Of a DNA stretch of 64,000 nt, positions 4,992 through 53,705 are shown in pieces. The stretch is from Terebella lapidaria (lineage: Eukaryota; Annelida; Polychaeta; Terebellida; Terebellidae): contig OX424564.1 of the NCBI GenBank assembly GCA_949152475.1, positions 25,976,165-26,040,164 on the forward strand, given 5' to 3'. A program made the translations under genes and the position numbers. Under the pieces are notes generated by a model that saw nothing but the letters and a program-made list of their open reading frames with translations, had not been told where the DNA came from and made no database searches. How positions within the stretch are numbered: the first letter of the stretch is position 1; each line of letters opens with the position of its first letter.

Positions 4992-6572
4992 CTATAGTTC
5001 ACAGATGTATTTGTACCAACTTGTACATGATCCGTCAGCCCATTCTCCGTTCCATTCCGAAACTTTTACGATACAATCGGCATCACTATAACCGCGGTAT
5101 GGCTGTCCAGGGTGCCAGTTACTGTACGTTATGATGTTTCCATTTGTCGTCCAGAAGAATTCGTATCGGTTTTTAGGATTTTGTCGCTTGCCAGCCAAAC
5201 GAACATGGATATCTGCACAAACAGACATAAGAACAAATATGAGAAACATTTGGCAGTGACGTTTGATATATCCATATCCCTTCCTGTGTATTTGCATGAA
5301 GACTTCTGGCCGGGAAGGAATAATCGTATATTACAATCGGTACCAATGAAGAGGAAATCAATCGTTAGGTTAAGCACTACTTATCGAGAACAAAGAAGTT
5401 AGTCATTGATTTATATCAGTGAACTGAGGGATAACTAAATGCCACTCACTGAGATGATCATAGATGCTCTCAATGAACACTTCTTCCTCTCTGGAATCTA
5501 CATCAGCCAGGTGAGCTCCAGGATAAAACTCAATGCATGACGTCATTGCATCATCAAAACTTTCTTGACCAGGACCAAGAATGTAGCAGTGGCTGCTTGC
5601 CACATTCCCAGCCATACCATTAGGACATGTCCCTGAAATGATATAGACTAAATGCCTCGAGACAAAAAGTTCCTATAGCACCCCTTTCGTGCCACAATGT
5701 GTGTGCTAGTATCTCTTGTATTAGATACTAATTCTTACTTAGGAGATGTATACTCAAATCATAGGTAGGAGATACATGTATTGTACTAAGTCACACGTAT
5801 ATGATATTAAACCGTGAGATATAGGAGATATTAGCATATATGTCAGAGGTGCTAAGTCATACATAGGAGATACTAAAAATTGTGTATACCCGAGGTCAAA
5901 GTGAAAATACAAAGCAATGCGTACAATTCTTCCTCCATGTTCTCCATCTGACATTCTTGCTTCATTAATATTCTTCATAAGAATGGCACATCGTGTACAC
6001 TTCTGTCTAGTTATTTCGAATATCTCCTACGCATGCCTTAATATATCCTATGTATGTCCTAATATTTCCTACATATGTGATAGTATATCCTTTGTATAGC
6101 TATCTGATGCCCATTTATGTCAGTATCTCATATGTTTTACTTAGCATATCATACATAAGGCCTAGTATCTCATACGTATAAGTTAGAACTAGAAAATTAA
6201 CTTCCCTTTCTGTGGCACAATCCAGGCGCCACAGGGTCCACAAAATTTATGACATGATACACATAAAGACTTACAAAAGTATGATGTTCCACTCTCATTG
6301 ACTAAGTGCACACGATGTGAGCTGGCTGGACCTGCCAAAATCTCACACGCCCCAGTCGTCTTGTCCAAGTTGAAAGCGAGACATTCCGCGTACATATCAC
6401 ACTCTCTACGACAGGCTTTGTACCCCACATTGTGTGAATGTTTTGTTAAAGTGGTTCCATTGTAGCGAGTGTTTTGTATCTCAAAGTAAGGTTGATGTGT
6501 ACATTGTATGGCGAAGTGGCCTTTGAAGTTGTACAGCAGAATCAAAGTATATGAAAGCAACCAGCCCTCCAT
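4992..6572 (-). CDS. Secreted PAN/apple + C-type lectin protein, gene B (3 exons)
   Basis: Predicted 233-residue secreted protein. Exons on the minus strand are 6572-6275 (298 bp), 5632-5450 (183 bp) and 5212-4992 (221 bp), with gtaagt and gtgagt donors, ttcag and tgcag acceptors, and phase-1 introns. Order: signal peptide (about 1-22), PAN/apple domain (about 24-99, motif CRRECDMYAECLAF), C-type lectin domain (about 101-233, ending YICEL). The ATG at 6572 is the one conserved in copies A and C; an in-frame upstream ATG at 6611 is less likely. In the sugar/calcium site the family motifs are altered: QPY at 197-199 and WAD at 218-220 replace the usual E/QPN(D) and WND. Canonical calcium-dependent sugar binding is therefore doubtful, although the cysteines of the fold are kept. 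It sits in tandem with A and C. Exons and phases match C and D exactly, so I am fairly sure of the structure; ligand and role are unknown. Confidence 0.88.
5690..6190. repeat. Degenerate minisatellite pair inside intron 1 of gene B
   Basis: Intron 1 of gene B is 642 bp, against 84 bp in C and 81 bp in D. The extra sequence holds degenerate units of about 20 bp around tactaagtcatacataggag (5690-5890) and, further right, the opposite orientation (aatatctcctatgtatg, about 6010-6180). The two halves are therefore inverted relative to each other, suggesting a decayed foldback insertion. Confidence 0.5.
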
Positions 6573-6631
6573 AATCAACATCCGTGTTTGAACGATCCCA
6601 ATGATGTCCAACTCTCACGCAATTCCTCCAC

Positions 6632-11908: not shown

Positions 11909-12846
11909 CTATAATTCACAGATGAAATTGAGCCAATTGGTACATGATTCGTCACCCCATTTCCCGTTCCAGTCTGGAATTTTTGTTATACAGTCAGCAT
12001 CACTGTAACCTCGGTATGGCTGTCCAGCGTGCCAGTTGCTGTATGATACGATGTCTCCAGTTGTCATCCAGAAGAATTCGTATCGTTCAGTAGGATTTCG
12101 TCGCTCGCCAGCCAAACGAACAGGGACACCTGCACAAACACATGAAAATTGTGATCAAAATGCGGCAGTCAACTTTCATACACGTAGAACTGTTTAGTTT
12201 TTCTCTTCTCGTGCGAATAAAGATATCAAGTGAGGTCTCTGAATCGGACAGACAGCTAAGGATTTACCATCTGCCACTCACTCAGATGGTCATAGATGCT
12301 TTCTATGAAAGTTTCTTCCTCCATGGATTCTACATCAGCCAGATGAGTTCCCGGGTAAAATTGACTGCATGACGTCATTGCACGATCGAAATTTCCCTTG
12401 CCAGGACCGAGAATGTAGCAGTGACTGCTTGCCACATTCCCAGCCATACCTTTAGGACATGTCCCTGAAAGGAGAGTGACTCACTCTACTTCCAGACAAG
12501 ATGTTTCACAATCTTTATGATATGGAATATTATAGGATAAAAACTTACAGAAGTATGATGTTCCATTCTCCACTGCCGAGCGACTATGATGTGAGCTGGC
12601 TGGACCTGCCAAAATCTCACACGCCCCAGATGTCTTGTCGAGATTAAAAGCGAGGCATTCCGCGTACATATCACATTCTCTCCCACAAGCTTTGTAACCC
12701 ACATTATATGAATGTTTTGTTAAAAATGTTCCATTGTATCGGGTGTTTTTTATTTCAAAGTAAGCTTGATATGAACAATGTATGGCGGAATAACATTCAC
12801 AGTTGTACAGTAAAATCAAGGAATATGAAAGCAACCAGAACTCCAT
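11909..12846 (-). CDS. Secreted PAN/apple + C-type lectin protein, gene C (3 exons)
   Basis: Predicted 233-residue secreted protein. Exons on the minus strand are 12846-12549 (298 bp), 12464-12282 (183 bp) and 12129-11909 (221 bp), with gtaagt and gtgagt donors and ttcag and tgcag acceptors; lengths are identical to gene B. Signal peptide about 1-22 (MEFWLLSYSLILLYN), PAN/apple about 24-99 (CGRECDMYAECLAF), C-type lectin domain about 101-233 (ends FICEL). The sugar-site motifs read QPY (197-199) and WGD (218-220), so like B it has lost the usual QPN/WND calcium ligands. Its ancestral 3' flank was displaced by the insertion at 9972-11779; an AATAAA on the minus strand at 11588-11593, inside that insertion, could now serve as its poly(A) signal. 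Intact and probably functional; ligand unknown. Confidence 0.88.
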
Positions 12847-12916
12847 GATCACCCATCTGTATTTGTGCAATCCTAATGAAACACAATTGTCCCGCACTCC
12901 CACATTTTTTTCCACT

Positions 12917-12922
12917 CTATAT
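12917..12922 (-). promoter_or_regulatory. TATA-like box of lectin gene C
   Basis: GGATATAGAGTGG on the minus strand, 71 bp upstream of the ATG, at the place equivalent to the boxes of A and B. It is a weaker TATA match. Confidence 0.45.
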
Positions 12923-13777
12923 CCGAAATCTATACCTTATTGACTCACTGAGATTAAGATTCTATTTTGCAATGGTGCTTAAGCCAAAACCGATGAGACC
13001 ATAGTCAAATGAGCTTTAGACGTCATGGCAGGTTATTGAGCAACCCCTATATGTAGTGTGTAGTATGCTACGGTAGACATAAAGAAACAATGAACACTTA
13101 ATCTTTGCTAGATGAATATTATAATATGAGCTGAAGGTTTTTCTGTATTATTATCCTCTGCAGAGGCACCTGTTGAAGCATAGCGAGGTTGCAGATAACA
13201 GTTTGGTCATTCGATACTAACTGGAACTACTGGGTTGTCAACATGTCTTGAGGTGGTCAGGAAGCATCCACCTGACTGCTGTAAACTTGAATAATCTCGA
13301 ATCATCATGTCCAAAGGGTCACAAGTTCAAGTAACAATCTCCAAGACAATGAATTAATCAGTGACAATAGCTCATATATATATATGTATACTGATGAGAT
13401 TGTTTCAATAAATATTGTCCCCAGTATCAATACAGCGTGGTAGTATTGCAAGTATGATTGCTGTACTCGACGCCACAACAACCTATATTCATTTCATATT
13501 AGTTCTGATGATTTGTCATACGTTGTAAGAATATCTAAAGTCAAACACATTTTATATCACCATTCCTGATTTCAATGCCTATATGGCTGAAATCTGGATT
13601 CAAAACACCCGTTGTGTGCTTGTTTGGGGGAAATGCACATTGCTCATTGCGATAGGCACTATCAGGAAACAGCATTGTTGCTACTAATACACCTAGCTCA
13701 CTCTCTCCAAGCTCAACCCGACATGTCGATATACATAATGTACATTCCATGTGGTGGCTACCTGACGTGAACACTCT
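12923..13777. other. 5' flank of gene C and spacer, no gene
   Basis: 12975-13045 resembles the 5' flanks of A and B. A short (TA)n run lies at about 13375-13390. 13550-13615 resembles the centre of the MITE at 3583. No coding sequence recognised. Confidence 0.45.
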
Positions 13778-15581: not shown

Positions 15582-16098
15582 TCATACTTCATACAAATTC
15601 AAATACAACCACAGCTGTTTTTTTTTCGAGAAGTGGAGCCAGTAGAACCTTGACTGAACAAGGCTGAGACTTCGGTCACGCCCAGGATGTCCCATGTCGT
15701 CATGGAAGGAGTCCATCACCTGCTGGTGAAGAGTTTCCGGGAGCACCACTTGATATGCTTCCTTTCCAGACCTTTGAACGACACGACATTCGAACCTCAT
15801 TCGAAGCTTGTCCCACTGGTGCCAAAACTTCAATGTTTCTCCATCCTCGTTGCAGACTTCCTGCTTTACTTGCTTTGTCCCAGTCTCTAGCCAGGAAATC
15901 ACTCTCTTCAGCACCCTACTAGCTGTCATCCCTTCGAGCCGCAGGTACGTCGATCCTGCTCAGTGTAGGTGTGTTACCCATCACCTCGGCTACCGTCTGT
16001 GAACAACGCAAGGAGTGGAGAAAACCATCTGGCACAGAAGTTTCCAGAACGGCCTTGATAATGCTGGCTTGCTGTTCTTGCCGTGGGAGTCTTGAAAG
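15582..16098 (-). pseudogene. Ty3/gypsy integrase N-terminal piece
   Basis: The minus strand encodes part of a gypsy polyprotein between RNase H and integrase. The H2C2 zinc-binding region is recognisable as HDDMGHPGRDRSLSLVQSRFYW (split here as HDDMGHPGRDR and FYWLHF). The frame changes near 15920 and the catalytic integrase core is absent: the reading runs into stops soon after the HHCC histidines. It belongs to the element bounded by the LTRs at 14984 and 16838. It is dead. Confidence 0.8.
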
Positions 16099-16100
16099 TA

Positions 16101-16603
16101 CGGAGCCCTTAAGGGGACATGCAGAAAATTCATTTAGAATGACCACTGATTATTTCGAGCGCTCAAAATCATTTCGACAGCTCGATATATTAATTCGAGC
16201 TATCAAAATCATTTTGATAGCTTGAATTAATTTATTTATTTCGAGTGCTCGAAATCATTTCGATAGTTCGAGTGCTCGAAATAAATTAATTCGAGCTATC
16301 AAAATGATTTTGAGTGCTCGAATTAATATATTTCGAGCGCTCGAAATATTAATTCGAGCTATCGAAATGATTTCGAGTGATCAAAATTATATTTTGAGTG
16401 CTCAAATTGTTTTATTTCGAGTGCTTGAAATGATTTCGAGCGCTCGAAATGATTTCGATAGCTCAAATTAATCATTTCGGGAGCTCGAAATGATTTCGAG
16501 CGCTCGAATTAATATATTTTGAGCGCTCGGAATGATTTTGAGCACTCAAAATAATCAGTGGTCATTCTAAATTAATTTTCTGCATGTCCCCTTAGGGGCT
16601 CCG
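16101..16603. mobile_element. Foldback MITE with TTTCGAGC minisatellite interior, inserted in gypsy
   Basis: Inverted ends CGGAGCCC.TTAAGGGGACAT of about 60 bp, flanked by TA (16099-16100 and 16604-16605). The interior is about 17 units of ATTTCGAGCGCTCGAAAT-like palindromic sequence (period about 17-20 bp) in alternating arrangement. It splits the gypsy reading frame between RNase H and integrase, so it inserted after the retroelement. Termini and TA target suggest mobilisation by a Tc1/mariner-type transposase. It shares the CGGAGCC end with the element at 36312. Confidence 0.85.
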
Positions 16604-18712: not shown

Positions 18713-18822
18713 AAACATCCCTCTCACGCCGTATTTGTGATAAATGCGAAGGCGTGGGCCTTATCCGACATAATATATTATTCCAGCAACAATATTACTC
18801 TAAGCAGTTGGGAAGAATCCCA

Positions 18823-18863
18823 TTTGGTGGCATATATGGCCAAACGGGATATATGCCACCAAA
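18823..18863. repeat. Perfect 15-bp hairpin, 11-nt loop
   Basis: TTTGGTGGCATATAT / ATATATGCCACCAAA around ggccaaacggg. The loop sequence recurs with changes at about 18879-18893 (tggccaaatggga). Confidence 0.85.
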
Positions 18864-18944
18864 CGGGTATACTTCCTGTATGGCCAAATGGGATATACGT
18901 CACAATCTGCCTATAGTTCATGATTCTTTTGTCATGGCCAAGTC

Positions 18945-19014
18945 CCTATTTTTAATAGGAACCTCTCAGGGAGGTTCCTATCTAGATAGGAACCTGAGAG
19001 ATATATAAAAATAG
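18945..19014. repeat. Nested hairpins around cctatttttaataggaacct
   Basis: Outer arms cctattttta / taaaaatagg; inner taggaacctctcagg... / ...taggaacctgagag blocks can pair in two alternative ways. Confidence 0.75.
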
Positions 19015-19658
19015 GAAAGACTACGAGTGTACAAAGAGTGTATGCCAAAAACTACACATGTTTGTTCACTTGAGTCGTTTCATCATTGCCGAAATTTAAT
19101 CCGGATGACGTCATAGACTGCACGCTGTGCCGGACTATGTAGATACCAGGTCATGCAATGTTGATGGTGTTCATATTGAATAACACCAACATTTGGCGAC
19201 AGGTGGCAGCACACGAAAATGAAATGTAGTGGCGATTCATTTTGAACTGGATGATCGTATTGACAACAAGATTGTCACATTAGAATGGCTTGCCTCATCT
19301 ACGATCCGAGAACGGAACACAATTATCTCCAGTCAGTGAGGAATGTATGCAAAAAACATAAAATCTTTCATGTACAGGGACAGTACACAGCCAGGGCTTT
19401 AACCAAAAGTGTCACGGTACTGGTACTCACTATAAATTCGTCTCTCATAGCCAGGATACCAAATATGTAAATGGTGTCGATACTGTGATACATGGCATGA
19501 CATATTGATATTGGTTTGTTTATACCCGTTCACATGTTAGCCACTAAGTTCATTCAAGTGTGACCACGTTTAGTTGTATGACTCGCATATAGACTGGGTT
19601 GACATTTAGTGCTTGGAGTAATATTGTTGACACTGGTACGCTGGAGAACTCAGCGATT
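19015..19658. other. No gene recognised
   Basis: Short frames only (for example 19285-19470 plus), without motifs. Confidence 0.4.
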
Positions 19659-19735
19659 GGGGGGGGGGGGGAGGGGAGGGGATTTGTATGGGGCCAAGAG
19701 GGTGGGGTGGTGGGGGAGTGGTGGTGGAGTGTGAC
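19659..19735 (+). repeat. G-rich tract, possible G-quadruplex
   Basis: A run of 13 G followed by several GGGG and GGG groups within 75 bp. The plus strand could fold into a G-quadruplex; the overlapping open frames on both strands are a product of this composition. Confidence 0.7.
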
Positions 19736-19914
19736 TGGCTGTCGTGAATCTTGTGAACAAAAGCAACTAATATATGCATGGCTTTTGGTTCTAGGAGAAA
19801 TTGTATATCATGAATATACAAAATTAATTCTATTAAAAACGTATTTGATTGGTGAAACAGATATTCCAAACTCTGTTTGTGAAATGTATCATTGGGGGAA
19901 TCCTGAACTATGTC

Positions 19915-20012
19915 GGATAGGGCCCACGGCTGAGGATCTATTGCAGATAGGACCCTCCGGCTTCGCCGTCGGGTTCCTATCTGCAATAGATCCTCAGCCT
20001 GGGGCCCTATCC
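19915..20012. repeat. Long GC-rich hairpin, 47-bp arms, TTCG loop
   Basis: GGATAGGGCCCACGGCTGAG...CCTCCGGC TTCG CCGTCGGG...CTCAGCCTGGGGCCCTATCC. Almost fully paired, with a classical stable tetraloop. The agataggaccctc block recurs at 29144. Confidence 0.9.
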
Positions 20013-20795
20013 TATACATAAAAAGGGCCACACGCACACTCGGGGTGTCAGAAACGGGCGTTAGTTAACAACAGGTGAGGCAAGCCCTGTTCGGTACAGT
20101 TTGGGCGATAATGTGTTTGAAAGACCGCGTAACATCATTTGACATAAAATGCATTTTTCTTACCCATTTTTAGCGGTCGCCTATTACATAAGATATTTGA
20201 GGCAAGTGCCATGACCTTATTTTCGAGTTGAGCAAATTACTAGCACGTGGGTTTAGTAGTTTGGGACGTATATTTCGAAATTAGAACACTTTTCTCACCC
20301 CAAAAGTCCTCCTCCGCAGCGACGCGTCAGTTTCATAGTTCATCCTGGTCTTCCGTCTGGAAAAGTATGGAACAATTTCAAAGTCATAATGCACTTACAG
20401 CACAATCGTAGTGGTGCGATGCTAACGTAAATGGGGTTCCGGGTGTCTCGCAGTGTATGGTCGCTAAATACACGCTTATAATATATCATATTGCTTGCAT
20501 ATGTCATGTGGGCAACTACAAACATGGATATAAAATGTCCGATAATGTAAATCATGAAAATCCGATTATTCAATTAATTCCATTATTCAATCAAAATACA
20601 TTGCATTGAACCAAGTACGTGTCAATAACTTCAGTACCACGTGTCAGAACAACCAACACACATTTTCCAATTTGATATGTACACATGAAACATTGAAGTT
20701 AAGGTCATGGCTCTGAGGTTATTCAATGGACATTAAAACAGTGTGTCGTATTTTCCCACACAGACACGGACATTGCAAAACTAAGCTAGTGAAAA
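20013..20795. other. No gene recognised; 5' flank of the MADS-PHD gene
   Basis: No TATA box or other core promoter motif identified before 20796. Confidence 0.4.
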
Positions 20796-22565
20796 ATGGG
20801 AAAGACAAGACGAACAACGGAATTGCAAACGAAAGGACGGCGACGAGCGGTCACGTTGTATAAGAGGAAACATACTCTTCTTGCCAAGGCAAGAGTGTTA
20901 ATATACATTGGGGCATACAGAGACATACAACCACACGCACAAAGACACGCATACCGCCACTCATGTACACACATATGGTACCATTTCCGAGAAATCTCCA
21001 ACAAAGTTGTCGTGAAATGTGGACAGCTCCTCCCAGAAAGTAATGAGAGCAGTCTTCGTCTTGGACTGTCTCATCTTTTTCCTCAAGTCGTCGACGTCGG
21101 CACCTAACTCATCCAAGTGTTGCAGTATGGTATTCGTCTCGCTCTGAATGTGTGCTTTCGTTTGGGTTTGAATATTTCGATCTGACTGGAGTATTGGAAT
21201 TTTAACGACATGAAGTCTGACTGATTTAGGGATTAAAATGTTATTGGAGATAGCGTCAATAACCGATTTAACTATGTCATTGGAAGTTAATGAGATCTGC
21301 ATTAAGGGTAATATCATCGACGGAAACATGAAGTTTGGCTAGGAAAGGGTCAGCAAGGTAATTGGTGGTTGTTAGGTGTGAGCACCACGCAGAAATCTCC
21401 TGCGAGAAACCAGTAGCTGACGGAAACATGTCATAGGATGAGGAGTTAGGCGCTGGCGGGGTGACAGACCACTTCGTCTTCATCTGGAGAAAAATAGTTG
21501 TGCTTGAAACACATGTAGATACCAAGATCCTAAACATTTTAATTGCATTATTTCACAGGAACTCATGAAAATTACACATGTACCAACCCAAAAAACAATA
21601 TATAAATATACATATTTTTTTTCTACAGGGAAAGTAATATAATGTCTTCTTTGTTCATAAAGTATGAGAATAGATGCGAAAACAATCAGAATTTCGGTCA
21701 AAGTGTACTTTCAAAATGTTTATTTTAACTATTGTGCAATATTGTAATTATTGCTTGTTTGAAAGTGCGTGTGTTAACTCAGGCATACGAGCTACACATG
21801 ACAACCAACTCCAAGGTACGTGTGTGGGTCGAGACAGACGAAGGAAGGACATATTCATATTCCAGCCCCAACTGCCCTTCACCAACACCAACGACGGTAC
21901 AACCTCCTTCAACACCAACACCTACACCACCACAGCCGGCAACAACACCACCACAGCCATCACAGTCACCTCCACCACAGCCACAGCCACCATTCACAAC
22001 AGCATCGCCCAAAACTATCTGTGCTTCTTCGTCAGCCCCCAAATGCGGTACCACTGAGTGTGCCAGTCAAACTGATCCACCAACCGACAACAAGGCAGAG
22101 GTACAGATGGACCATTTATGTAATAGATAACCGCATCTGTTTGTTCTGCAGAGTTCCGACCAAATAAAAGTATTACCTTAGTATAATAAAGGTTCATCAT
22201 ATCATTCATTGCAAGGATACATCTGAAGATCACTGCAAACTGTGCGGAATATTGTCTGGAACAGAGGAAGAAGCTGGAATGGGACCATGGCTCGGCTGTG
22301 CCGAAAAAGATTGCAGCTATTGGTGCCATGCTAAATGTACGGGCATTGTGGCCAGCAAGCGCACTCTGTCTCGTTCAAGCCTGAAATTTTATTGCCCCAA
22401 ACATAGGTATTACAAGACCAGTTTTGGTGTTTATCGCAGCATGTATGTTTTGGTATACCTTACCTTCACTGTCATTAACATTTGGTCACATCTTAACAAA
22501 GGTTTTGTCACACTGTTTGCAGGAGCAATTGCAATGACAAACGGTTGACATTGACACATAATTAG
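20796..22565 (+). CDS. Predicted MADS-box + PHD-like finger protein (4 exons)
   Basis: Four exons join in frame to 214 residues: 20796-20888, 21783-22100, 22216-22406, 22523-22565. Exon 1 starts in good context (aaaATGG) and ends KRKHTLLAK; exon 2 resumes AYELHMTTNSKVRVWVETDE. Together they match the SRF-type MADS box (family pattern RR..T..KRK.....KAYEL....), residues 1-62. Intron 1 uses a GC donor (AAG/GCAAGA) with a ctcag acceptor; the other donors are GT. A proline/threonine-rich linker follows (about 62-105). A PHD-like zinc finger follows with C144, C147, C165, C170, H175, C178, C197, H200 (GCAEKDCSYWCHAKC, then FYCPKH), so its last ligand is His and not Cys. The expected role is a sequence-specific DNA-binding factor with a chromatin- or protein-binding finger in the nucleus. 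I know no such fusion. The last two junctions are less certain than the first; without the last splice, exon 3 reads on to a stop at 22548. Confidence 0.65.
20961..21537 (-). CDS. Antisense ORF pair in intron 1 of the MADS-PHD gene
   Basis: Two overlapping minus-strand frames, 21537-21277 (86 codons) and 21329-20961 (122 codons), look like one coding region with a frame change near 21290. A possible acceptor (tttttctccag) precedes MKTKWSVTPPAPNSSSYDMF at 21483. The second half contains a likely coiled coil (ETNTILQHLDELGADVDDLR). No family recognised. It may be an unknown gene's last exons or a decayed transposon ORF, and its position inside an intron of an opposite-strand gene is worth noting. 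Confidence 0.35.
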
Positions 22566-22831
22566 TTTTGGATAAAATTACTAGTAAGGCGTCACTAGCA
22601 CTGTAAAGAACACGGCACTAGATAAATTCTGCACTTTTCTATACACCTTAATCGATAAGCATTATCATTATTCCACATGTTGAGGCATACTTTGAGCTAA
22701 AACCACATGGTTAGAAATTAATAGTGTAAGCAGTCGGTGCAACACGTCAATCCACAAAATAAAAACAAAACACATTGCTTTCATAATCAACTTGTGATGT
22801 ACAACACACAGGTGTTATGATGTGCAGTACA

Positions 22832-25045
22832 TCATATAGAAACCTTTTGAAGGTTGTCCACATTTCGACAGACGAATTTCCAGTTTTCTTCACTCGGGAC
22901 TCCCACTGGCAGCAATCGCTTCAGCCACCTATTCCTAAGCTCCAGACGAAAGTCCCCTGCCTTGGCATTACAGTGGTCCCCACCCTCAGCAAAACCTTAA
23001 TTTTTTTCCATCATTGTGCGGACTTCGGGAGGTGCAGAAAGCCTAATCATACTATCCCTAAGGAAAATCTCCACATAATTGGGCATATTCATTATAGAAA
23101 ACAGAGGGCATAGCACTGATTTGCCGATGGCAATGATTTGGGCATTGTTGTTCCTGACCCCGGCCTTGAACAAAAAGAAGGCCCACACATATTTGAAGAC
23201 ATATTCAAACATAAAGCTATAGTTTGGATTCTGGACCCTCTCAAGCCAAACCAGCAAACCAGCATGGGAGGGTTCAACACCTCTGGCCTGAGCATCATGT
23301 GCATAAGGTGCAATCAAACACTGAGCACTACCATGGAACAAAATCGTCAGGATGTCTTCACTCTTATGGAGGTCTTTGGCGGCTTGGCAGTAAGCTTGAG
23401 CTTTGGGAGTTCTGAAACCTAAAAGACGTGCTAATGGGGAAATAAATGTGTGCCAACCTAATTTGAATAATGCCTTAGCGAAATTAATTTGGAAATGACC
23501 TAAACCTGGAACAAGGATGATGGATTTATGTTTCAGATGATAAGATGGATTCGTGTTGGGTTGCATTGAATGATGTTGTGTTAAATGATGCTGGAAGTCT
23601 TGGACGCCGCTGGAAACATCTATGTGACAAATGCTGCATTCGAAACAATCGTCTTGCAGTTTGCTGCCAAGAACATATGGTGCCCCATCACAGCCCAGAA
23701 TGGTACATGACCGACTTCCTCCAGAAAGCGTGGCTGTGGTAAGTTCATTAAGCACTGTATTAACCCGGTCAAAACTGTTGGGGTTGACCATGATGGGTTC
23801 ACCCATCATGATCTTGCAGGGTAGGTCGGGAACATGATTTTCAATGGTGTATGAATTGGTGTTGCTGATGCTTGTGGTGCATGTTTCAGATTTCTGTGAA
23901 ATGGCTGTTGCTCTATTGTTTTCATAAATGAAAGTGACTTCGGTATGTTGAGATAAATGAAGTGGTTGGCGGATGACGATCCCTCGTGAGATGAGTTGTG
24001 GAATATATGGTGTCAAGAATTGAGAATGTGAAGATGAGAATGCAAGTTGGCTGTCTTCAATGGAAGTCTGGAACGCTAACGTTGGAAATGGCTTTTGGGA
24101 GCAGGAAAATGGAAACCACGAAACTGGATTAAACTGTTCATCACTTTGTATGTTACTGTTACCATTACATGCATTGTGAATGACGCTGGTAATGATGCTG
24201 CTTGGCACTATTCCACCAACAAGAACACCTCAATTGCGCGCAATCACTTGGCTATTGTCGAAGTAAGATATGCTATCTCCCTGGAGGACACACTGCAAAG
24301 GCTGGGAAGAGCGTTCTGTCAACCACAGTCGTGTGGTGTCATAGCTCTCTGAAGGACCAAAATAAGACAGCAGATTCAAGACTGTTTTGCTACCTGTCAG
24401 CAAATAAATGAGTACACTCATTCCAAATGATAAAGGACATATGATCCGGTTGCTACTGGCATGCAGCAACGATTCTAGTATGCGGCAAATAGATATATCA
24501 GATGGTTGGACATCATCAGCCTTGGTACACATGTGTTGAAGGAAAAAAAGTAGGAGCGGGTGAAAGTGTTTCATCCATAGCTGCATGTCAAAATCACTGA
24601 TGGTTGACCATGAATAGTTACTAGATTTCTGGGTGTATGCTGTTTGTGGAGGGATGCGTAAAAAATGTGCAACTGAGACAAGAAGGAGTTTCAGATCAGC
24701 CTCCGACAACGCATTCATCATGAGTGCGTCACATACAGGTTTCACCATGTCTGCCAGGGGTGTTCTGCAATCCGGCATGGGCTCGTCATCAATAGAAGCC
24801 TCAACATTCTCGTCAGAGACCTCTTGCATTTGTTGTTTGCTTGGCCGAACAGTTGCGTTTTGCAAACATCTTGCACATAAATAAGTTGCCCCCTTCTTTA
24901 GGATTCCCTCCCTCCTTAGCATCTGCAGTACTCCCTTACTAATCCTTTTGTTATTGTTAATTCGGTAACAATCTCCCTCATTTCTTTCATTTATCTGTTC
25001 ATGAGTTTGAGATGAACATTTACTGGCCATAGTTCTTGCTGTCAT
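22832..25045 (-). pseudogene. Multicopy-type uncharacterised protein gene with two in-frame stops
   Basis: A single minus-strand frame of 738 codons from ATG at 25045 to a stop at 22832, interrupted by TGA at 24232-24230 and TAA at 22999-22997. Protein-like sequence continues in the same frame after each stop, so these are point nonsense changes, not the gene's ends. Features: N-terminal Cys pair (YLCARCLQNA), a segment DSISYFDNSQVIARN just before the first stop, a C2H2-like finger (CSICH...HHLTQHH), VPGLGHFQINFAKALFKLGW, LLGFRTPKAQAYC, and near the C-terminus LPVGVPSEENWKFVCRN. This pattern matches, from memory, a large uncharacterised family repeated in cnidarian, lancelet and mollusc genomes (possibly DUF6589-like), probably transposon-linked. 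It converges tail-to-tail with the MADS-PHD gene, about 270 bp away. Function unknown. Confidence 0.6.
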
Positions 25046-25144
25046 GAGTTAAATAAATTGGAATACCAAATTGTTCAAGGGCATGATAGTTGTCCATGAA
25101 GGCAGGGTAGAAAAGGGAGGAAGAAGAAATGAATATAAAAAGTA

Positions 25145-25790
25145 AATATTGCGATTTTGCTCAAATATTTCAATAGGAGTTTCGGCCGCTATCCTACTCC
25201 ATACCTACCTGTTTTGACTCCTGCAGAACTCGTGCATTCCCTTAGTGACGCATTGTGTTTTATCTATACACCATACTGTAAAAATGGTTTCATGTCACAC
25301 ACTCGCTCTTGTGTACTTTTGTGTTTTTTTGTCTGAGTAGAGGGTCCGTGAGGACCCCGGAGTCAATGGTTTAAGGTGCGGTAAGAGCACAGTAGTGAGC
25401 TATGGTTTATTTGAGTTGGTGCTAGGGGCCTATTCAGTCAATGAGGGGGGTTAGATCACCATGGTGAAAGTCGAATACCGCACCTTGGTAAGTCAATCCC
25501 AAACAGGAGCCCAGGAGGGAGGCTGCTTTGATCCTGGGGCTGATGTCCCCATGCAGTGGTAGTCTCTCACCCTGGTATGGTGCGTACAGGCTCTGAGGGA
25601 TCGTCAGGCTATCCGGGGTTCTATCCCCGTGGTAGACCGTCGGCTAGGCTAGCCAGCAACATGCCCACCTGACTATTACCTGGACTATTACCTGGTCGCA
25701 GTTTAGTAATAACGACGCCTGCGTGACTGTGCACTCATGAGGGGCACTAGCACCCTAGGTAGCGGGCATCAAACGTTACATAAATAAGCA
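25145..25790. repeat. Dispersed repeat, copy 1, with Pol III B-box-like motif
   Basis: Matches 27780-28405 in order: gcgattttgctcaaa, actgtaa.aatggt, caggctctg, ctatccggggttctatcccc. GGTTCTATCCC at 25617-25627 fits the B box pattern GGTTCNANNCC and sits in a gggg...cccc stem like a T arm, but no A box was found at the proper distance. It may be a SINE-related or an old transposon copy. Confidence 0.5.
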
Positions 25791-27779
25791 TTACTTAAGG
25801 TAGTAATGTTCCAGAAGGCCACTGCAACACTGATACAGGATTTTATTCTTAACAAGCACATTTTATTTAATTTCAAACTGCATTTGTGATCCTCCAGCCT
25901 GTTTAATAAATTCAGAGTTCATGTGTATATCAATGACTACTGTATTAATAATAAATATCGATTGTTACAACATGTAATGCCATTATTAATCTGCTGCTAC
26001 ATACCTTTTTGGCGTAAAATAGAGTAGTAACTGAGGACTTGACAGCGTGATCTTCTATGCTGAAATAAAACACAGTATTTGTCCTTACCAGTATCATTTT
26101 GTTCTTCGCAGGTGATGTTCCAACACTTGACAAGTTACCAAGTACCACAAGGAGTGTATTTTTGGTTGTATGAATATACCGATGTAAATGTTGAATAATA
26201 AATGTTATGTGTCCTGAAGTCGCATTTCAAGGTGTTTGTGTAACTAGAGGGCGGTCGGGAGAGGCAGTCAGTCTCACGAACGCATAGGTGTCCCCCAGTA
26301 CAATTCAGAATAAATTGCAGCACGTCGTTTTCATGAAAAATATAATGTTTTTCTTCGTGACGGCCATCTTGTATCAATGAAGTGGCGGAAATTCAATAGC
26401 ATCCTGTCGCAGGGCCCGATGTATGTGTACAAAGAAGTTTCGGGAAGTATGTGAAGTTTGTTGGAAAGCATCGAACGTTTGTTGGTAAGTTTCAAACTAA
26501 AGTGCATGGCGTCATTTCTGGATGGCTCATGTCGCAGGGGAAACCGCAAAAAGTAAGATATATTGTCCCCTTTGGGTGAAATAAGTAGGTGTATGAGATG
26601 TAGATTTTTTCGAAATCAAGACGAAACAAATGGAAAGCCGGTGCTACACTGTGGTAATAATTTCACCGAAATCGCATTTATTTAAAGAAATATTCAGTTG
26701 TCAACAACGTGTGGTTGAAGCCTATCAGCCACAGCCAGTGCTATTCCTCCGTGGATAACATTACCTGTGGTGAAGCACCACAGGCTAGCAAAAGTACGTG
26801 CAGCAAGGCCCTCCGATATAACACTACATAATCCTCGGGGTACGCGCCCCACTATGCCCCACCATCTTGTGACCGGACAACAATGGCAGTGTGGTCCTGA
26901 GGGTTATTCGGCTCCGTTATACACGACAAACAGTTTCTCCATCCAGCCTCCGGACGCACCCGGTACACGTGATACCTGAACCAAAATTGCTATTGATAAC
27001 CAGTACACAACAATTCACGATATGTTCATGAACGAATATTTCAGTTCTGCCAGTTACACTTGCCCTTTGATTGTCGATTTGAACGCAATGACACCATGAC
27101 TGTTGGGGTCGACTCCACGAGCCCGAACACAGCGCCTCACTGAGCCAAGCAAACCTCGACGAGATGGCATACTTGAATGCACTGAAACATTTTTTCCGAA
27201 GGAATATGAACGCGTTGGCAATAGAATGTACCACGGAACAAGTCCAGATCTACTGTAGGATGTGAACGCGGTGTTAGTTCATTGGACAAGGTCCGACTCA
27301 TACATGCCATCAGTTAGTACAACATAACAGTTATGTAGCCTGGTGTCATGAGCCCGTGAGCCATGGAGGCGGCTCTCGGTACACAAGCACGTGGCCGTGT
27401 TGCTGGCTGGGCCTGCCGACAGTGCCACAAGCTCATAAAAAACATGTTAGCCTGAAGGGCTGTCAGAGCCTGTATGTAGTACGTCAGGCTTCAACCGATG
27501 CATCACCCTCAGGTTGGATATAATCAAATGCGTTGAAGGATATTGTCACAATTATGAAACATATGACCACCACCGTATTAACGCATGCTTCACATGTGAT
27601 GCTCCAAAAGTGTTTGACACCTGTCCACATCGATAGGCAAACCAAAAATTTAGTCTGGTCATTTAATTTCTGAGTCCGCATGACATTTTGTCCATTTGCT
27701 CAGTTTTGAAAATTTTTGAAGAAACAAATATTTTCGTACCATACACCCTACTGTGTCTTCTGGTGTAAAATCATACCAA
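25791..27779. other. Intergenic, no gene recognised
   Basis: Contains a perfect small hairpin cctgtggtg-aag-caccacagg (26763-26783) and a GC-richer stretch 26780-26960. Open frames here (up to about 105 codons) show no motif. Confidence 0.4.
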
Positions 27780-28405
27780 TGTGTGGCGATTTTGCTCAAA
27801 CATTGCGGCAGGAGATTTGTTATTAACACTATAATTGTTTTGGCCGCTTTGTGTTCAAAGCACGTCAGTTGCAAAACAACGCTCTCTAATCCTCTCGCTC
27901 CACTATACTGTAACAATGGTCTCGTTCTTGGGGTTATAAAAACTGCCAAGCCGCTTTGTGTCTTCGGATTTGTGTCAGAGCTAGCAACGCGAGAGGACGA
28001 CGAGTGAGCTCGGCCATGAGCTCCACGTCTCTTTCGTCCGGTTACAAGTGGGCTGTGAGGCCCCGGGGACGATTTCCAATTGGGCGCCCAGGAAGGGGAC
28101 CATGCTGAACCAGGGCTCGTCCATGTGACCACCAGTCTCTTGCCCTGGGATGGTACGACACAGGCTCTGGAAGACCATCGGGCTGTCCGGGGTTCTATCC
28201 CAGTGGCGGACCGTCGGTGAGCCGGCCACAGCTAACACAACGATGGTGATCTTGTATCTGAGTGGTGTCCTTACGTCCGGGCTTGTTCTGGGGACCGCTA
28301 CGTGGTTAACGTTCTAAGTAAATACTGCGCCCGCGATGATCCCTCGGTGAGTGGACTATCCGCGAGGATCTGGGATAGCGGACGGCGTCAAACTTTACAA
28401 ATGCT
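27780..28405. repeat. Dispersed repeat, copy 2
   Basis: Diverged direct copy of 25145-25790, including gctgtccggggttctatccc and the end block agcgga..gcgtcaaac.ttac. A 157-codon minus-strand frame (27659-28132) overlaps its left part. The corresponding frame in copy 1 is broken, with only short similar pieces (PFLQY, LSKIA), so an ancestral transposon protein is possible but not shown. Confidence 0.5.
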
Positions 28406-29260
28406 TCTAATTCCGATGGATGTAAACAGAACCAAATGTTACAATATGCTCTGTTTTTCGACATCCCTTTCTGGGGGAAAATTCCACATTGGGGGTAGAT
28501 TGCCAACTTCCTCAATTTTTGAGGTAGAAGTGGGAAATATTGGAAAATAAATCAGGTTGACTCAGAGGTGAAGTATGCAAAGTAATAGAAGGATAAACTG
28601 TAGCATTCCAAATATATCATGAGAAACCGGAGTGCACAAGTTGAAAATATCACAGTGCAGGAACGTACCCGCTAAAAAATTACATATCTTGAGGTCAGTA
28701 AATATTATTCGAAGTCATGAACAATTGTAACTTTGATGATTTCCAAAAATTGCCACATGATGCATTTGTTTTCAGGAATTTCATCCCTTTTTCTTGTTGT
28801 AACCACGTGACCAGATGCATACATTTATACGGAAACAATTTATTACAATCGGAAATGCAGGAATAAATTCAAGTGAAAAGTCATAAGGCATTGGTGTACG
28901 TGCATTATGAAGTTGACATTCATGTCTTTGTCCGCATATAACATAACATACATATTAACATACAAGTTTATTCTGCACAAACGTTAACTATTATTGCCCT
29001 GTCGTTTTCGGCTACATTGTTATAAATCTTACGACATGTGAAGTGTTCCATAATTCTGGATTTTTTGGAATGTATCCAAGTCAACCCTACGACATCTAGC
29101 GAATCAAGTCAAACTACACCCAGGACAGACAGGGTTTTATCTTAGATAGGACCCTCTGTGAAACAAAAGAATCATGCTCTGTGGAAGAACAAACAGCACA
29201 AGGTACTTGGACCGTGAATTTTATGATGCATGTAGTGCACTCTACTCTACTAATACGTAT
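28406..29260. other. Intergenic, no gene recognised
   Basis: Nothing beyond the block ttagataggaccctc at 29143 that it shares with the hairpin at 19915. Confidence 0.4.
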
Positions 29261-33620: not shown

Positions 33621-33717
33621 TCGTCAACATATATCTCCATGGTTGAGACATTAACACTTTCAGTTGGAACCAGTTGGCAAACGTTTCAGTGAAGCACTTA
33701 TACACTGGTGATACAGC

Positions 33718-34710
33718 GTGATGAAAGTCAAAATGGACGGATGCATAATCCATTCAGTTTTGGTAATGTTACTGGTCACCAGACTAACTTTGTCCATACA
33801 GTGCATCCCACGTCAAACATACTTTGAGATGCCAAACACTGGCTACAGTGGAACCCATCTAACAAAACATTCACACAATGTCGGGTACAAAGCTTGTCGA
33901 CGAGAGTGTGATTTGTACGTGGAATGCCTGGCTTTCACCCTGGAAAAGTCATCTGGGGCCTGTGAGATTTTGACAGGTCCAGCCAGCTCACATCGTGCAC
34001 ACTTGGCTGACGAGGGTGGAACATCATACTTTTGTAAGTCATTACTTCACACTATGCGTATCAATTTTTGTGGAACTTTTCTTGTATCCATGTATTAAAT
34101 CTTTATCATTTCAGGGACATGTCCTAAAGGTATGGTTGGGAATGATGCAAACAACCACTGCTACATTCTTGATCCCAATAAAGAAAGTTTTGATGGTGCA
34201 ATGACGTCATGCAGTCAGTTTTATCCTGGAGCTCACCTGGCTGATGTAGATTCCAAGGCGGAAGAATTGTTCATTGAGAGCATCTATGACTACCTGAGTG
34301 AGTGACACTAAGTTAAAAGTATCCCTTAATTGGCGGATATAATCCATAGCTTGACTTCCTTGTTTATATCGTTATTGACACGAACGAACACATTATTCTT
34401 TTGTAATAAAACAATTGATGCTACATGAAAGTTACTCCGTTTCACGTTCTTATTTTGCTCATGCATATATGTTGCGTTTGATAATGCAGAGTTTCCTGTA
34501 CGTTTGGCTGGAAAACGAAAGAATCCAGACAACCAATATGAATTTTTCTGGATGACAACTGGAGCCATCGTCACATATAGTAACTGGAGAGCTACGCAAC
34601 CAAACAACGGAAACAGCGGTGCTGATTGTATCATAAAAATTGCAGCATGGAATGGAAAATGGAATGACGGATCATGTTCCAATGGGTTTCATTTCGTCTG
34701 TGAATTATGA
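33718..34710 (+). CDS. Secreted PAN/apple + C-type lectin protein, gene D (3 exons)
   Basis: Predicted 239-residue secreted protein on the opposite strand to A-C. Exons 33718-34033 (316 bp), 34115-34297 (183 bp) and 34490-34710 (221 bp); introns are 81 and 192 bp, phase 1, with gtaagt/gtgagt donors and ttcag/tgcag acceptors. Signal peptide about 1-25 (hydrophobic VLVMLLVTRLTLS), PAN/apple about 28-105 (CRRECDLYVECLAF), C-type lectin domain about 107-239 (ends FVCEL). Unlike B and C it keeps calcium/sugar-site motifs, QPN (203-205) and WND (224-226), so carbohydrate binding is plausible. It starts at the first ATG; MDG at codon 5 is an alternative. It stands alone 21 kb from gene C. No TATA box was identified; the repeat at 33515 abuts its 5' flank. 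Confidence 0.9.
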
Positions 34711-36311: not shown

Positions 36312-36907
36312 CGGAGCCGTATTGCTGCCAATGGAGAAATTTTTTTAACTCAAAATTTCAAGATAATAACTCGAAATTTCGAGATAATAACTCAAAATTT
36401 CGAGATAATAACTCAAAATGAACTAAAAGTTACGGAATAAATCATATATAGTAATATCTCAAAATTTCGAGTTAATTTCTCGAAATTTCGAGTTTTTATC
36501 TCGAAATTTTGAGTTACTATCTCGAAATTTTGAGTTACTATCTCGAAATTTTGGAATGGAAAGTTCGACTTACTATCTCAAATTTTCGAGGTAATATCTT
36601 GAAATTTTGACTTAATATCTCAAAAGTTTATAAGATTATAAGTCCAAATTTGGAGATATTATCTCTAAATTTTGAGATATTAACTCGAAATTTTGAGTTA
36701 TTAACTCAAAATTTTGAGAGAAAAAAATTTCAGGCCTGGCAGCAATACGCTCCCGTAATCTTGAGTTATTATCTAGAAATTTTGAGTTACTATCTCGAAA
36801 TTTTGAGTTATTATCTCAAAATTTTGAGTCATTATCTCGAAATTTTGAGTTATTATCTCGAAATTTTGAGTTCAATAAATTTCTCCCTTGGCAGCAATAC
36901 GGCTCCG
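36312..36907. mobile_element. Foldback MITE with CTCGAAATTTTGAG minisatellite interior
   Basis: Inverted ends CGGAGCCGTATTGCTGCCAA of about 40 bp, flanked by TA (36310-36311 and 36908-36909). The interior consists of about 20 degenerate units of 17-18 bp around ctcgaaattttgagttatta, left units largely inverted relative to right ones. An internal copy of the terminus (ggcagcaatacgctcccgta, about 36739-36757) shows that it is a compound of two elements or was internally duplicated. It shares the CGGAGCC end and the ATTTCGAG theme with the element at 16101. Confidence 0.85.
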
Positions 36908-38570: not shown

Positions 38571-41037
38571 CAGCATATATTATTTCCTCTATATTTTCAC
38601 AATTGATTGCTAAGCTGTAAAGTCGAAAATAACAGAGATATTAACCATGTTTTGCTCTGACCTTGAAAATAAGGAAAAAAGTCAACTTCAAGGTCATGCT
38701 AAAACAGCATATATATTTTCTTATATGTTCACTATCACTGTAGGAACCCTACTACCGTAACGCGGCGTTACGGTAGTACGGGACGATGGCGGTAGGCGAG
38801 TGGTTCGATTGGTTTTTTTGAGATTATCGTTTATAGAACACATATCACTCTTCTCCGATGGTGTGTTTTGATGCCTCTTGAAGTTTCGCATCTATTGTCG
38901 TATTGTTTTGTGGGAATATTGCTCTTAATTAGTCAGAAAATGGGAAATGGAGATCAAGTGAATACTACGGTAACGTCAGATCAGTAGCTGCGGGGTACTA
39001 CCGTAACGCCAAGCATGTACTACCGTAACGTTAACCTTGGTCTCAAATTGGGTCTTTCGTAAAATGTCTTTTGCATCGTTTCAGATAAGAATTTCGTATA
39101 TAAGGAGCTTGCATATACGAAATTGATTTCGAGGTACAATTGTTTTCATATTATACTACTGATACTGTATGGTGTCATGTAAAATGACGAAATGTGGTGT
39201 TTTGGGACGTCTATAACTGAACATATTACACGGGTTGTCGAAGAAGCAAAAAGTGAGCAAGCAAATAAGCAATTTTTTAACATTGAATAATGACATTTTC
39301 GAATGTTACCCTAGCGTAGGAAATTTAGTTGTACTAATTTTATGATAAGGTATGAGTGAGAACATAATATTGACAAGATACCCTTATTTTAACGAAGATA
39401 ATGATATTCTGATTTTTTTCAATGCCATACATTGTTGTCGTATTAATATATAAAATGTTAAGATAAATTTGTGTATTCCGAGCCGTATAATTTACATGTA
39501 TGCAGACGTTGACCGTTGCACAGTATTTTACACACTCGTCTGAGTTAAAAAAGACAATAACGTTCAGAACAAGATTTAATTGGCATCAATTATTAGTATA
39601 GATTCGCACAGTGATATGCATCAGATATGGTCTCTTTTTGACATTTGATTTTTCATCGACGTCTGTGAAATCATATCAAAAGATAATGCATACTATGAAA
39701 GAGTGAATCCTTTTTTTATGCACAATGTTTTGTTTGGTGTCAGTCAAACTTTGAAACGTACGGTATAAGGTAAACTTCAACTTTGAGGTGAACTTGAAGA
39801 TAAGGTAGCCACTGGTCCAACCGCAATGTACCCACGGAAGAACCGCAAAGGTTTCCTCTTAAAACGTTTATACACTGTCCCCCAAAAAAATCATCATCAG
39901 AAGGCTGTAACGATTATTGAATTTCTGTCAGGATATCAGGTATTCTTTAATTTATGAGTAAGTGTCTGGGGTCAAAATCGTACCAGGACCCAAAGTCTTA
40001 AATTCCATTCCAAAGTGAACGGGACACCCTGAATCATTACCAGATTCATCGTCTAGACATCTGAGACTGATGCTAAAATGAGACTCTGAATGATGTTAAA
40101 TAACATGCACTAAAATTCTGTTCGCCGAATGGCTTGTCAACGGGCAGTAATATGTATCCTGATGTATTTTTCACATAGGCTACATATATGCATGACGAAT
40201 TCCGAAACTCTATTGTCCCGATTATGATCATCGATCGACAACAATATTTGAACTATTTATCGATAACGAAAATCCTAAAATATTATTAAAATCCAAGTGT
40301 TACAACATGTTAATTTTTTATATATGCAAGCGTTACGGTAGTACTTGAAATCTGGAAATTGGCGTTACGGTAGTGGGCCGCTAACGTTACGGTAGTAATC
40401 GTCGCATATTTAAAACCGTTTTTTCTCGCAAATCAATCAGATTCACAGTTTAATTATATTGCCACACTATAAAGCGTACCTAGACAATTCGCCTCATGTA
40501 GATGTTATGTGCGAAACCTACCTAATACCCAGTTTATCGTGAAAAAACTTTTCGAAGCTAATAACCTTCCGCCATCGTTTGGACTACCGTAACGTCGCGT
40601 TACGGTAGTAGGGTTCCTACAGTGACTATGAATCCCTAAGCTATAAAGTCGATAATGAGCGAGATATTAGCCATTTTGTTCTCTTGACATTGAAAATGAG
40701 GTCAAAAGTCAGAGTCACCAGTATATTCGGCATATATCATTTACCACATGTTTACTATGGATTCCTAAGCTGTAAAGTTGACAATTGGCGAGATATTAGC
40801 CATTTTGTGCTCTGACCTTGCAAATAGGGTCAGAGGTCAACTTCAAAGTCATGAGAATATTCAGCATATATCATTTCCTATATGTACACAATTGATTCCT
40901 AGGCTGTAAATTTGATAATAATTGAGATATTAGCCGTTTAGTTCTCTGATCTTGAAAATTAGGTTAAAGGTCAAATTCAAGGTCACGAGACCAAATTCAA
41001 GGTCAATAGTATATTCAGCATATATCATTTCCTATTG
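38571..41037. repeat. 134-bp satellite, short array (interrupted)
   Basis: About four units of the same satellite seen at 62-63.6 kb (attcagcatatatcatttcc, gattcctaagctgtaaagtc, gagatattagccattttg, gaccttgaaaat). Units here are more diverged. The array is split by the 1.9-kb element at 38736. Confidence 0.85.
38736..40624. mobile_element. 1.9-kb TIR element with 5-bp target duplication and ACTACCGTAACG motifs
   Basis: Ends CACTGTAGGAACCCTACTAC, inverted repeats of about 57 bp with few mismatches, flanked by ACTAT on both sides (38731-38735, 40625-40629). Satellite units elsewhere show the uninterrupted target (gttcactatgg), confirming the duplication. The termini contain the palindrome ctaccgtaacg-cg-cgttacggtag. 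Further copies of actaccgtaacg lie inside both ends (38965-39030 and 40330-40400), as transposase-binding sites would. No frame above 60 codons, so it is non-autonomous. CAC ends plus a 5-bp duplication suggest the Transib/RAG-like group. Confidence 0.8.
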
Positions 41038-52977: not shown

Positions 52978-53705
52978 TGATGATATTAGAGGTGATTACA
53001 CAAGTGAATTATATTGTTACCCTCACCTTCTGGTAATTCTTGTGAACTATTTCTTATGATTACTTGTCGTTGTGCTTCAGTGATTGAGACTATTATTCCA
53101 GATGTCGAGTGTATCCCATTCAATGAATGGTCTGCTTCCAAACAGGAAAACAGTGGAACTTCCTCTTCACTTCTGTAACAAAATGATAGAGCTGGTCACA
53201 AGTGAATAAAAAACAGGAAGTCATTTTGTATGCCCTGACTTTTTCTAATCTATCAAAAATTACAGCTATAATCACTTTTAGAATTGACAAAAATTCATTC
53301 ATTCTGCGGTAGCTTCATATTGTGTATAGGATGAGAAATCGTACAAATTTAGGTATGAAAATGTGTATTACGTGCCTGAATTGAGTTGCCAAATAAGATT
53401 CGAATTCGGGCCAGTCTATTTCGTATCATTTTTTTTCCTCAAAGCGATCCGCCTTGCGAGCGAGTTCTACACACAGTTTCATGACGTCATTGATATTTGT
53501 CTAGATACTGTGGCAACCGGCAATGTAGGCAGACCGATCATTCTCTATCCACTGTTTTCATGCACGATTAACGACAATTTTCTGAGTATCTGTTGTCGAA
53601 CTGTGCATATTTCCTATATTTTTCCGACTATCTTGAGATGTACTTTCAAGTTTGCGTGACAAACAAAAATGCTAAATTTGGCTGATTTTAAAATTGATTC
53701 CAACT
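52978..53705. other. 5' flank of the TRIM-NHL gene
   Basis: 52978-53280 is copied at 53888-54194. No intron acceptor obvious near the ATG, so this is promoter or 5' UTR. 53290-53705 shows nothing recognisable. Confidence 0.5.

What the first reader, a model, noticed from the sequence alone, without database searches (positions are those of the whole stretch)
20796..22565. A MADS box spliced to a PHD-like finger: apparently new domain architecture
Seen: exon 1 ends KRKHTLLAK and, 894 bp on, exon 2 begins AYELHMTTNSK after a good acceptor. Joined in phase 0, they recreate the SRF-type MADS core across the splice, which is unlikely by chance. The same frame runs into a Pro-rich linker and, after another in-phase intron, an eight-ligand PHD-like finger. 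Known: animals normally have two MADS classes (SRF, MEF2), neither with a PHD finger. Inference: a third, lineage-specific animal MADS regulator, perhaps derived from or captured by a mobile element.
Basis: partly seen in the sequence, partly recalled or inferred. Interest (0 to 1): 0.88.

Follow-up and report, generated by a model that had tools for sequence, protein, structure and literature searches.

The report
Transposon carrying a MADS-PHD protein gene
The odd gene that joins an SRF-like DNA-binding domain to a chromatin-reading finger is real, but it belongs to a family of jumping genes that carry it beside a transposase-like gene, and is not an ordinary animal regulator.

Summary
The spliced exons form an SRF-type MADS box (PF00319 35.6 bits, cut-off 26), the best of 249,331 splice joins in the window, with controls peaking at 14 bits. 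The window's own genome (761.6 Mb) shows what it is. MADS-PHD genes recur in the same exon order facing a DUF6589-like, probably transposase, gene: 29 of the 35 PHD loci found have one convergent within 5 kb. A complete 9.8-kb copy has 137-bp inverted ends and a 5-bp target duplication; three copies about 99% identical (10.1-10.5 kb) have 161-167-bp ends and three different 5-bp duplications. The window holds a damaged copy: left end at 18805, right end missing, transposase-like gene broken. Intron 1 sits at the same codon boundary and phase as in the host SRF gene, suggesting capture of an SRF gene. Likely role: the element's own DNA-binding, chromatin-reading partner for its transposase, analogous to RAG2. 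Function is untested, and animal genomes other than this one could not be searched.

The parts
18805..18915 (+). Left terminal inverted repeat, outer 111 bp (starts CAGTTGGGAAGAATCCC)
   Evidence: 111 of 111 identical to the C5 copy's left TIR
18916..20017 (.). Stretch absent from the C5 copy, interrupting the left TIR; includes a 98-bp foldback at 19915-20012
   Evidence: C5 alignment jumps from 18915 to 20018; foldback
20018..20046 (+). Inner remainder of the left terminal inverted repeat
   Evidence: 29 of 29 against the C5 right TIR, inverted
20796..20888 (+). MADS-PHD exon 1: start codon and first half of the MADS box; GC donor follows
   Evidence: read also in the C5, C11:26.54M, C12:6.15M, C13, C15 copies
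20961..21552 (-). Antisense coding-like stretch inside intron 1, two overlapping frames (21277-21552, 20961-21338); one open frame of 258 codons in the C5 copy
   Evidence: tblastn matches inside intron 1 of the C5, C12:28.19M, C11:26.54M and C15 copies, open in C5, 30% over 50 residues in C1. Codon score not raised in the window
21783..22100 (+). MADS-PHD exon 2: second half of the MADS box (AYELHMTTNSKVRVWVETDEGRTYSY) and Pro/Thr-rich linker
   Evidence: exon start at the same place in other copies
22216..22406 (+). MADS-PHD exon 3: PHD finger
22523..22563 (+). Probable last exon and stop of the MADS-PHD gene
   Evidence: good acceptor; not confirmed further
22758..22763 (+). AATAAA/ATTAAA polyadenylation-like signal
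22850..25045 (-). DUF6589-like, probably transposase, gene, convergent with MADS-PHD; interrupted here by in-frame stops at 24230-24232 and 22997-22999
   Evidence: open frame of 764 codons in the C5 copy and 841 in the C1 copy, which matches PF20231 at 21.8 bits, E 8.7e-5, cut-off 27
25046..29126 (.). Right arm of the element; homology to the C5 copy stops at 29126, before its right TIR; no second copy of the TIR start in the window

Best explanation
The window holds a damaged copy (18805 to 29126, right end missing) of a DNA transposon about 10 kb long. Complete relatives have 137-167-bp terminal inverted repeats starting CAGTYRGGAAGA and 5-bp target duplications (shown). The element carries two convergent genes: a DUF6589-like protein that is probably its transposase (inferred) and a protein with an SRF-type MADS box, a Pro-rich linker and a PHD finger (shown as sequence). 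A third conserved coding stretch lies antisense inside intron 1 of the MADS-PHD gene (seen in the window and four other copies, more weakly in C1). The MADS box most likely came from an SRF gene captured with its intron (inferred from the shared intron site and phase). Most likely mechanism: the MADS-PHD protein dimerises and binds DNA in or near the transposon ends or at host sites, while the PHD finger reads the histone H3 tail (probably H3K4me3), so that it steers the transposase complex to chosen DNA or chromatin, as RAG2's PHD does for RAG1 (inferred, untested).
For: MADS real; five of five further copies exceed the PF00319 cut-off (31.1-44.6 bits). Profile of six transposon MADS boxes against PDB: MCM1 6.6e-10, SRF 9.2e-9, ahead of SEP3 3.5e-6 and MEF2 1.5e-5. 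Same intron site and phase as host SRF GIMKK|AYEL; the host MEF2 exon runs through that place. Mobility: C5 copy with 137-bp TIRs, 99.3% identical, CTGTC on both sides; C1, C8, C13 copies 98.8-99.4% identical with TSDs TCCTT, TATAT, GTATA. Gene partnership: 29 of 35 PHD loci have a convergent transposase-like match within 5 kb. Selection: dN/dS 0.04-0.24 in the 5 of 14 exon comparisons where it could be computed; dS was saturated in 7 and zero in 2. PHD: all eight ligands and two tryptophans invariant in six copies. The 19 PDB matches of exon 3 are ING4, DIDO1, TAF3, BPTF, RAG2 and KDM5B chains, E 0.067-1.9; the 12 of the six-copy profile are SIZ1, BPTF, RAG2, DIDO1 and one plant protein, best E 3.2e-4. 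That these are PHD fingers, mostly readers of H3K4me3, is established knowledge, not a call.
Against: No transcript, binding or transposition data. The second helix that completes a MADS dimer is not seen; a Pro-rich linker follows at once. The copies compared for selection were those whose exons could be read open, some share the same exon sequence, and other copies are decayed: C12:28.19M lacks the start codon, C3 has stops, C8 and C13 carry a stop inside the PHD, C7:10.9M and 11.0M have a damaged exon 2. Window against C5 gives 5 replacement and 3 silent changes (0.48), too few to judge. A CArG-like box at TIR position 26-35 is in two TIR types but not in the C11 copy, so TIR binding is unproven. 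The DUF6589 match is below its cut-off and no catalytic residues were tested. The tree does not place the transposon MADS clade beside SRF. Six of 35 PHD loci showed no transposase-like match.
Confidence: 0.86

Rival explanations
1. A third, host-serving animal MADS regulator, perhaps domesticated from the element in this copy.
For: The window's MADS-PHD frame is open while its transposase-like gene is interrupted; both domains look constrained across the family.
Against: The same open protein sits in a complete element in C5 with TIRs and TSD. Window and C5 copies are about 95% identical over 9 kb including non-coding parts, so the open frame may only reflect youth.
Confidence: 0.06
2. MADS exons and PHD exon belong to separate genes that happen to be adjacent in the element; the protein never contains both.
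For: Intron 2 donor and acceptor are only top-11% sites, and a second acceptor (22192) scores nearly as well; exon 2 runs on to a stop within 30 bp of the donor.
Against: Exon order and strand are kept in diverged copies; 22101/22216 is the best of the in-frame pairs tried.
Confidence: 0.1
3. The MADS-PHD protein is not a transposition partner but a transcription factor or silencing-escape factor that drives the element's own promoters.
For: MADS proteins are transcription factors (PMC13293092, passages seen); a PHD reader could keep the element near active chromatin (inference).
Against: No promoter or binding evidence; not separable from the main reading with sequence alone.
Confidence: 0.3
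4. Chance resemblance to a MADS box.
For: None beyond the short length of the domain.
Confidence: 0.005

Closest known systems
SRF / MCM1 (SRF-type MADS-box factors, PF00319)
   Same: MADS box over the curated cut-off; best PDB profile matches MCM1 and SRF; intron at the same codon boundary and phase as host SRF
   Different: No second helix seen; Pro-rich linker and PHD finger instead; encoded by a transposon in many copies
MEF2
   Same: MADS domain family
   Different: Weaker match; host MEF2 exon runs through the KK|A place
RAG1/RAG2, ProtoRAG and Transib
   Same: RAG inserts at 5-bp target sites and its partner RAG2 has a PHD (PMC11844651, abstract and passages seen); convergent gene pair in ProtoRAG (recalled)
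   Different: The 841-aa protein matches no RAG1/Transib family in Pfam and nothing in PDB; the partner has a MADS box and no RAG2-like part was found; that paper says ProtoRAG's RAG2-like protein lacks the PHD
DUF6589 proteins (PF20231)
   Same: 841-aa ORF of the C1 copy matches at E 8.7e-5, best stretch 592-695
   Different: Below the family's cut-off (21.8 versus 27 bits); paired with a MADS-PHD gene
Two-gene DNA transposons such as Harbinger (Myb-like partner) and CACTA/En-Spm (TnpA) (recalled)
   Same: Transposase plus a separate DNA-binding accessory protein
   Different: 5-bp TSD, DUF6589-like protein and MADS-PHD partner; no direct comparison was run

Membership tests
SRF-type MADS-box protein | MADS domain over PF00319 cut-off | tested here: met
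   35.6 bits in the window; 31.1-44.6 in 5 of 5 further copies
SRF-type MADS-box protein | Intron at KK|AYEL, phase 0, as in host SRF | tested here: met
   host SRF L003/L004; transposon copies
SRF-type MADS-box protein | Second helix after the beta strands | tested here: not met
   Pro-rich linker follows at about residue 62; judged from sequence only
SRF-type MADS-box protein | Groups with SRF in a tree | tested here: inconclusive
   own clade (100/99) on a long branch, attachment unresolved
SRF-type MADS-box protein | Dimeric binding of CArG-like DNA | not testable with these tools
   needs an assay
PHD finger | Eight zinc ligands in PHD order | tested here: met
   invariant in six copies; last ligand is His
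PHD finger | Score over Pfam PHD cut-off (24 bits) | tested here: inconclusive
   window 17.4-22.4; other copies 24.7, 22.5, 25.8, 27.4, 24.6
PHD finger | Binds histone H3 tail | not testable with these tools
   two invariant tryptophans fit an aromatic cage (inference)
Cut-and-paste DNA transposon | Terminal inverted repeats | tested here: met
   137 bp in C5; 161-167 bp in C1, C8, C13; the window copy has only the left end
Cut-and-paste DNA transposon | Target site duplication at different sites | tested here: met
   CTGTC, TCCTT, TATAT, GTATA
Cut-and-paste DNA transposon | Transposase with catalytic core | tested here: inconclusive
   DUF6589 E 8.7e-5, below cut-off; AlphaFold model of the window fragment too poor
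Transib/ProtoRAG | RAG1-like transposase | tested here: not met
   no such match in Pfam or PDB by sequence
Host-serving MADS gene | Single locus without mobile-element features | tested here: not met

The most novel reading that the evidence does not exclude
A previously undescribed group of animal DNA transposons (5-bp TSD, DUF6589-like transposase) captured an SRF gene with its intron, joined it to a PHD finger and uses the product as a DNA-plus-chromatin targeting subunit, a solution parallel to RAG2 that arose independently; an antisense coding stretch sits interlocked inside the MADS-PHD intron.
Probability: 0.42. Interest if true: 0.92.

Novelty: new variant of a known kind. Interest (0 to 1): 0.83.

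Why it matters
Animal genomes are described as having two primary MADS types, SRF and MEF2 (PMC13293092, passages seen). Here an SRF-type MADS box sits in a mobile element and is kept with a PHD finger across diverged and partly recent copies. It offers a second testable case, besides RAG2, of a transposition system with a PHD partner, and a possible source of new MADS genes in animal genomes. Annotators may meet such genes as 'SRF-like' or 'PHD' models.

Tried and rejected
No relatives of the MADS-PHD protein: 5.8 billion proteins (806 candidates, none at E up to 0.01), viral contigs and prokaryote contigs. No relatives of the transposase-like ORF in viral contigs or prokaryote contigs; in the protein collection it found one relative, with a profile three including that one, unnamed and without a Pfam family over its cut-off. 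These misses say little, since the collections seem to hold few animal genomes (inference).

An inverted-repeat search within the window found nothing above shuffles; the ends were seen only once another copy was at hand. AlphaFold models of the finger (pLDDT 44) and the transposase fragment (33) were too poor, so no fold search was made. Codon-use score was uninformative. CArG and MEF2 sites are not enriched in the window. Each of two TIR types has one CArG-like box (one mismatch) at position 26-35; in 2000 shuffle pairs a shared position came up once, but the TIRs are themselves related and the C11 copy lacks the box: weak. Ten paper searches listed no paper on a MADS protein in an animal transposon by title or abstract; four had no result, and only 15 of 184, 20 of 5,345 and 10 of 2,014 papers were listed. 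Passages of three SRF papers (PMC9348820, PMC8806183, PMC10703445) did not give the mouse SRF intron position. PNAS 1321818111 was not held. A genome-wide count of the inverted repeat did not complete.

Full report
The sequence claim. Residues 15-57 match SRF-TF PF00319 at 35.6 bits, above the cut-off of 26. Exon 1 alone gives 14.7 bits and exon 2 alone nothing, so the match depends on the splice. The first intron is GC-AG. The intron 1 acceptor and both intron 2 sites are unremarkable. The finger in exon 3 has eight ligands and matches PHD models below their cut-offs. Its 19 PDB matches are ING4, DIDO1, TAF3, BPTF, RAG2 and KDM5B chains, each weak on its own, E 0.067-1.9; that these are PHD fingers is known, not a call.

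The surroundings. On the minus strand at 25045-22850 lies a transposase-like gene in one frame, interrupted here by two in-frame stops. Inside intron 1, also on the minus strand, is another coding-like stretch (20961-21552). From the window alone neither inverted repeats nor relatives of the MADS-PHD protein were found.

The own genome. The genome search answered three times. The window is contig C11:25976165-26040164 of a 761.6-Mb assembly. A PF00319 search returned five matches, which I read as host MEF2 (C8), host SRF (C7, two exons) and two SRF-like boxes (C9, C5:26.89M). The spliced window box is not in that list, because the search ignores introns. Host SRF is interrupted at GIMKK|AYEL in phase 0, the same place and phase as window intron 1 (LLAK|AYEL). 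The host MEF2 exon runs through that place.

Copies. The MADS-PHD protein matches 46 stretches. At C5, C12:28.19M, C3, C11:26.54M and C15:12.17M, MADS-PHD pieces, transposase-like pieces and, except in C3, the antisense stretch lie in the same order and strands. The second MADS exon, starting after an AG with A[YIAHQ]EL, was then read upstream of the finger at further places: C12:6.15M, C1:2.6M, C13:28.87M, C8:32.86M, C15:6.28M, C2:19.29M and C7:24.74M, weakly at C2:28.5M, damaged at C7:10.9M and 11.0M, and near a transposase-like match at C8:39.57M. First MADS exons were read in C5, C11:26.54M, C15:12.17M, C12:6.15M, C13, C1 and C8; C12:28.19M has lost the start codon. Only fetched loci were examined for a MADS box, so not every PHD locus was. 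Of the 46 rows I took the 35 that cover the finger (10 rows of MADS or linker only and one double row dropped); 29 of 35 have a transposase-like match on the opposite strand, convergent, within 5 kb; six have none. Both searches score only the best candidates (92 of 92 and 102 of 122), so counts are lower bounds.

Mobility. The C5 copy (G000:C5:32531513-32541309, 9,797 bp) has inverted ends of 137 bp, 99.3% identical, with CTGTC on both sides (the duplication was read by eye). Its MADS-PHD exons are open with the same splice sites and, by my count on the alignment, about 97% like the window's, with a 24-base in-frame difference in the linker. Its transposase-like frame is open for 764 codons, departing from the window's frame near the end, and its antisense frame for 258. 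The C1, C8 and C13 copies are 98.8-99.4% identical to each other over their main aligned stretches, 10,502, 10,506 and 10,075 bp long, end in 161-167-bp inverted repeats and have three different 5-bp duplications, TCCTT, TATAT and GTATA. In C1 the transposase-like frame is open for 841 codons and matches DUF6589 at E 8.7e-5, below the cut-off; it has no PDB match at E up to 1. Of these three copies the finger is open in C1 and carries a stop in C8 and C13. The window copy keeps the left inverted end (18805-18915, then 20018-20046 behind a stretch that C5 lacks) and loses homology to C5 at 29126, before the right end.

Conservation. Five of five further MADS boxes exceed the PF00319 cut-off (31.1-44.6 bits) and four of five further fingers the PHD cut-off. 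All eight ligands and two tryptophans are invariant in six fingers. A profile of six MADS boxes finds MCM1 and SRF before SEP3 and MEF2; a profile of six fingers has 12 matches: SIZ1, BPTF, RAG2, DIDO1 and one plant protein, best E 3.2e-4. Of 14 exon comparisons, dN/dS could be computed in five (0.04-0.24), silent sites were saturated in seven and unchanged in two; the whole window-C5 comparison gives 0.48 on eight changes. The comparisons are not independent (some copies share an exon sequence) and used copies whose exons are open, so they show constraint in those lineages, not in every copy. In a tree of 22 boxes the six transposon boxes form one clade (100/99) on a long branch whose attachment is not resolved; the C9 and C5:26.89M boxes pair (98/97) near SRF and MCM1 with weak support.

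Reading. The gene is part of a transposon (shown by order, ends and duplications in other copies). That the MADS box came from an SRF gene is inferred from the intron and the profile; the tree neither supports nor excludes it. That the protein binds DNA as a MADS dimer, reads a histone tail and guides the transposase complex is inference from the families. RAG is the nearest analogue: it can insert at 5-bp sites, and RAG2's PHD both recruits RAG to H3K4me3 and restrains transposition, while ProtoRAG's RAG2-like protein lacks the PHD (PMC11844651, abstract and passages seen). The transposase-like protein here is not RAG1-like by Pfam or PDB sequence search. Animal genomes are described as having two primary MADS types (PMC13293092, passages seen). 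My ten paper searches listed no report of a MADS protein in an animal transposon, with the limits given under tried and rejected; that is not proof of novelty.

Noticed in passing
L002 + L056 (G000:C9:6408263-6414900): A second kind of SRF-like MADS box, not interrupted at KK|A (a very weak candidate for its first part lies about 0.5 kb upstream), with a distant convergent transposase-like match 3.3 kb downstream: perhaps an independent or older association.
   Followed up: partly
L005 + L058 (G000:C5:26890500-26896327, minus): Another divergent MADS box, paired with the C9 one in the tree (98/97); no transposase-like match in the 5.8 kb fetched.
   Followed up: partly
20961-21552 (-): Conserved antisense coding stretch in intron 1 (DELGADVDDL motif); a good-looking acceptor precedes it at 21483 and it may be the last exon of the transposase-like gene, which would make the two genes interlocked.
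   Followed up: partly
4992-6614, 11909-12936, 33712-34710: Repeated PAN-domain plus C-type-lectin stretches, a likely lectin gene cluster (several matches below cut-off).
   Followed up: no
51208-52995 (-): 595-aa open RING plus NHL-repeat (TRIM-like) frame; 53614-53925 (-) repeats parts of it.
   Followed up: no
16149-16557 and 36346-36877: Arrays of imperfect palindromic units (TTCGAGCGCTCGAA-like and CTCAAAATTTCGAGAT-like).
   Followed up: no
62266-63593: 134-bp tandem satellite, about 10 copies, 92% matches; a similar 134-bp unit at 40628-40990.
   Followed up: no
15582-15959 (-): Integrase zinc-binding (H2C2) fragment of a retroelement.
   Followed up: no
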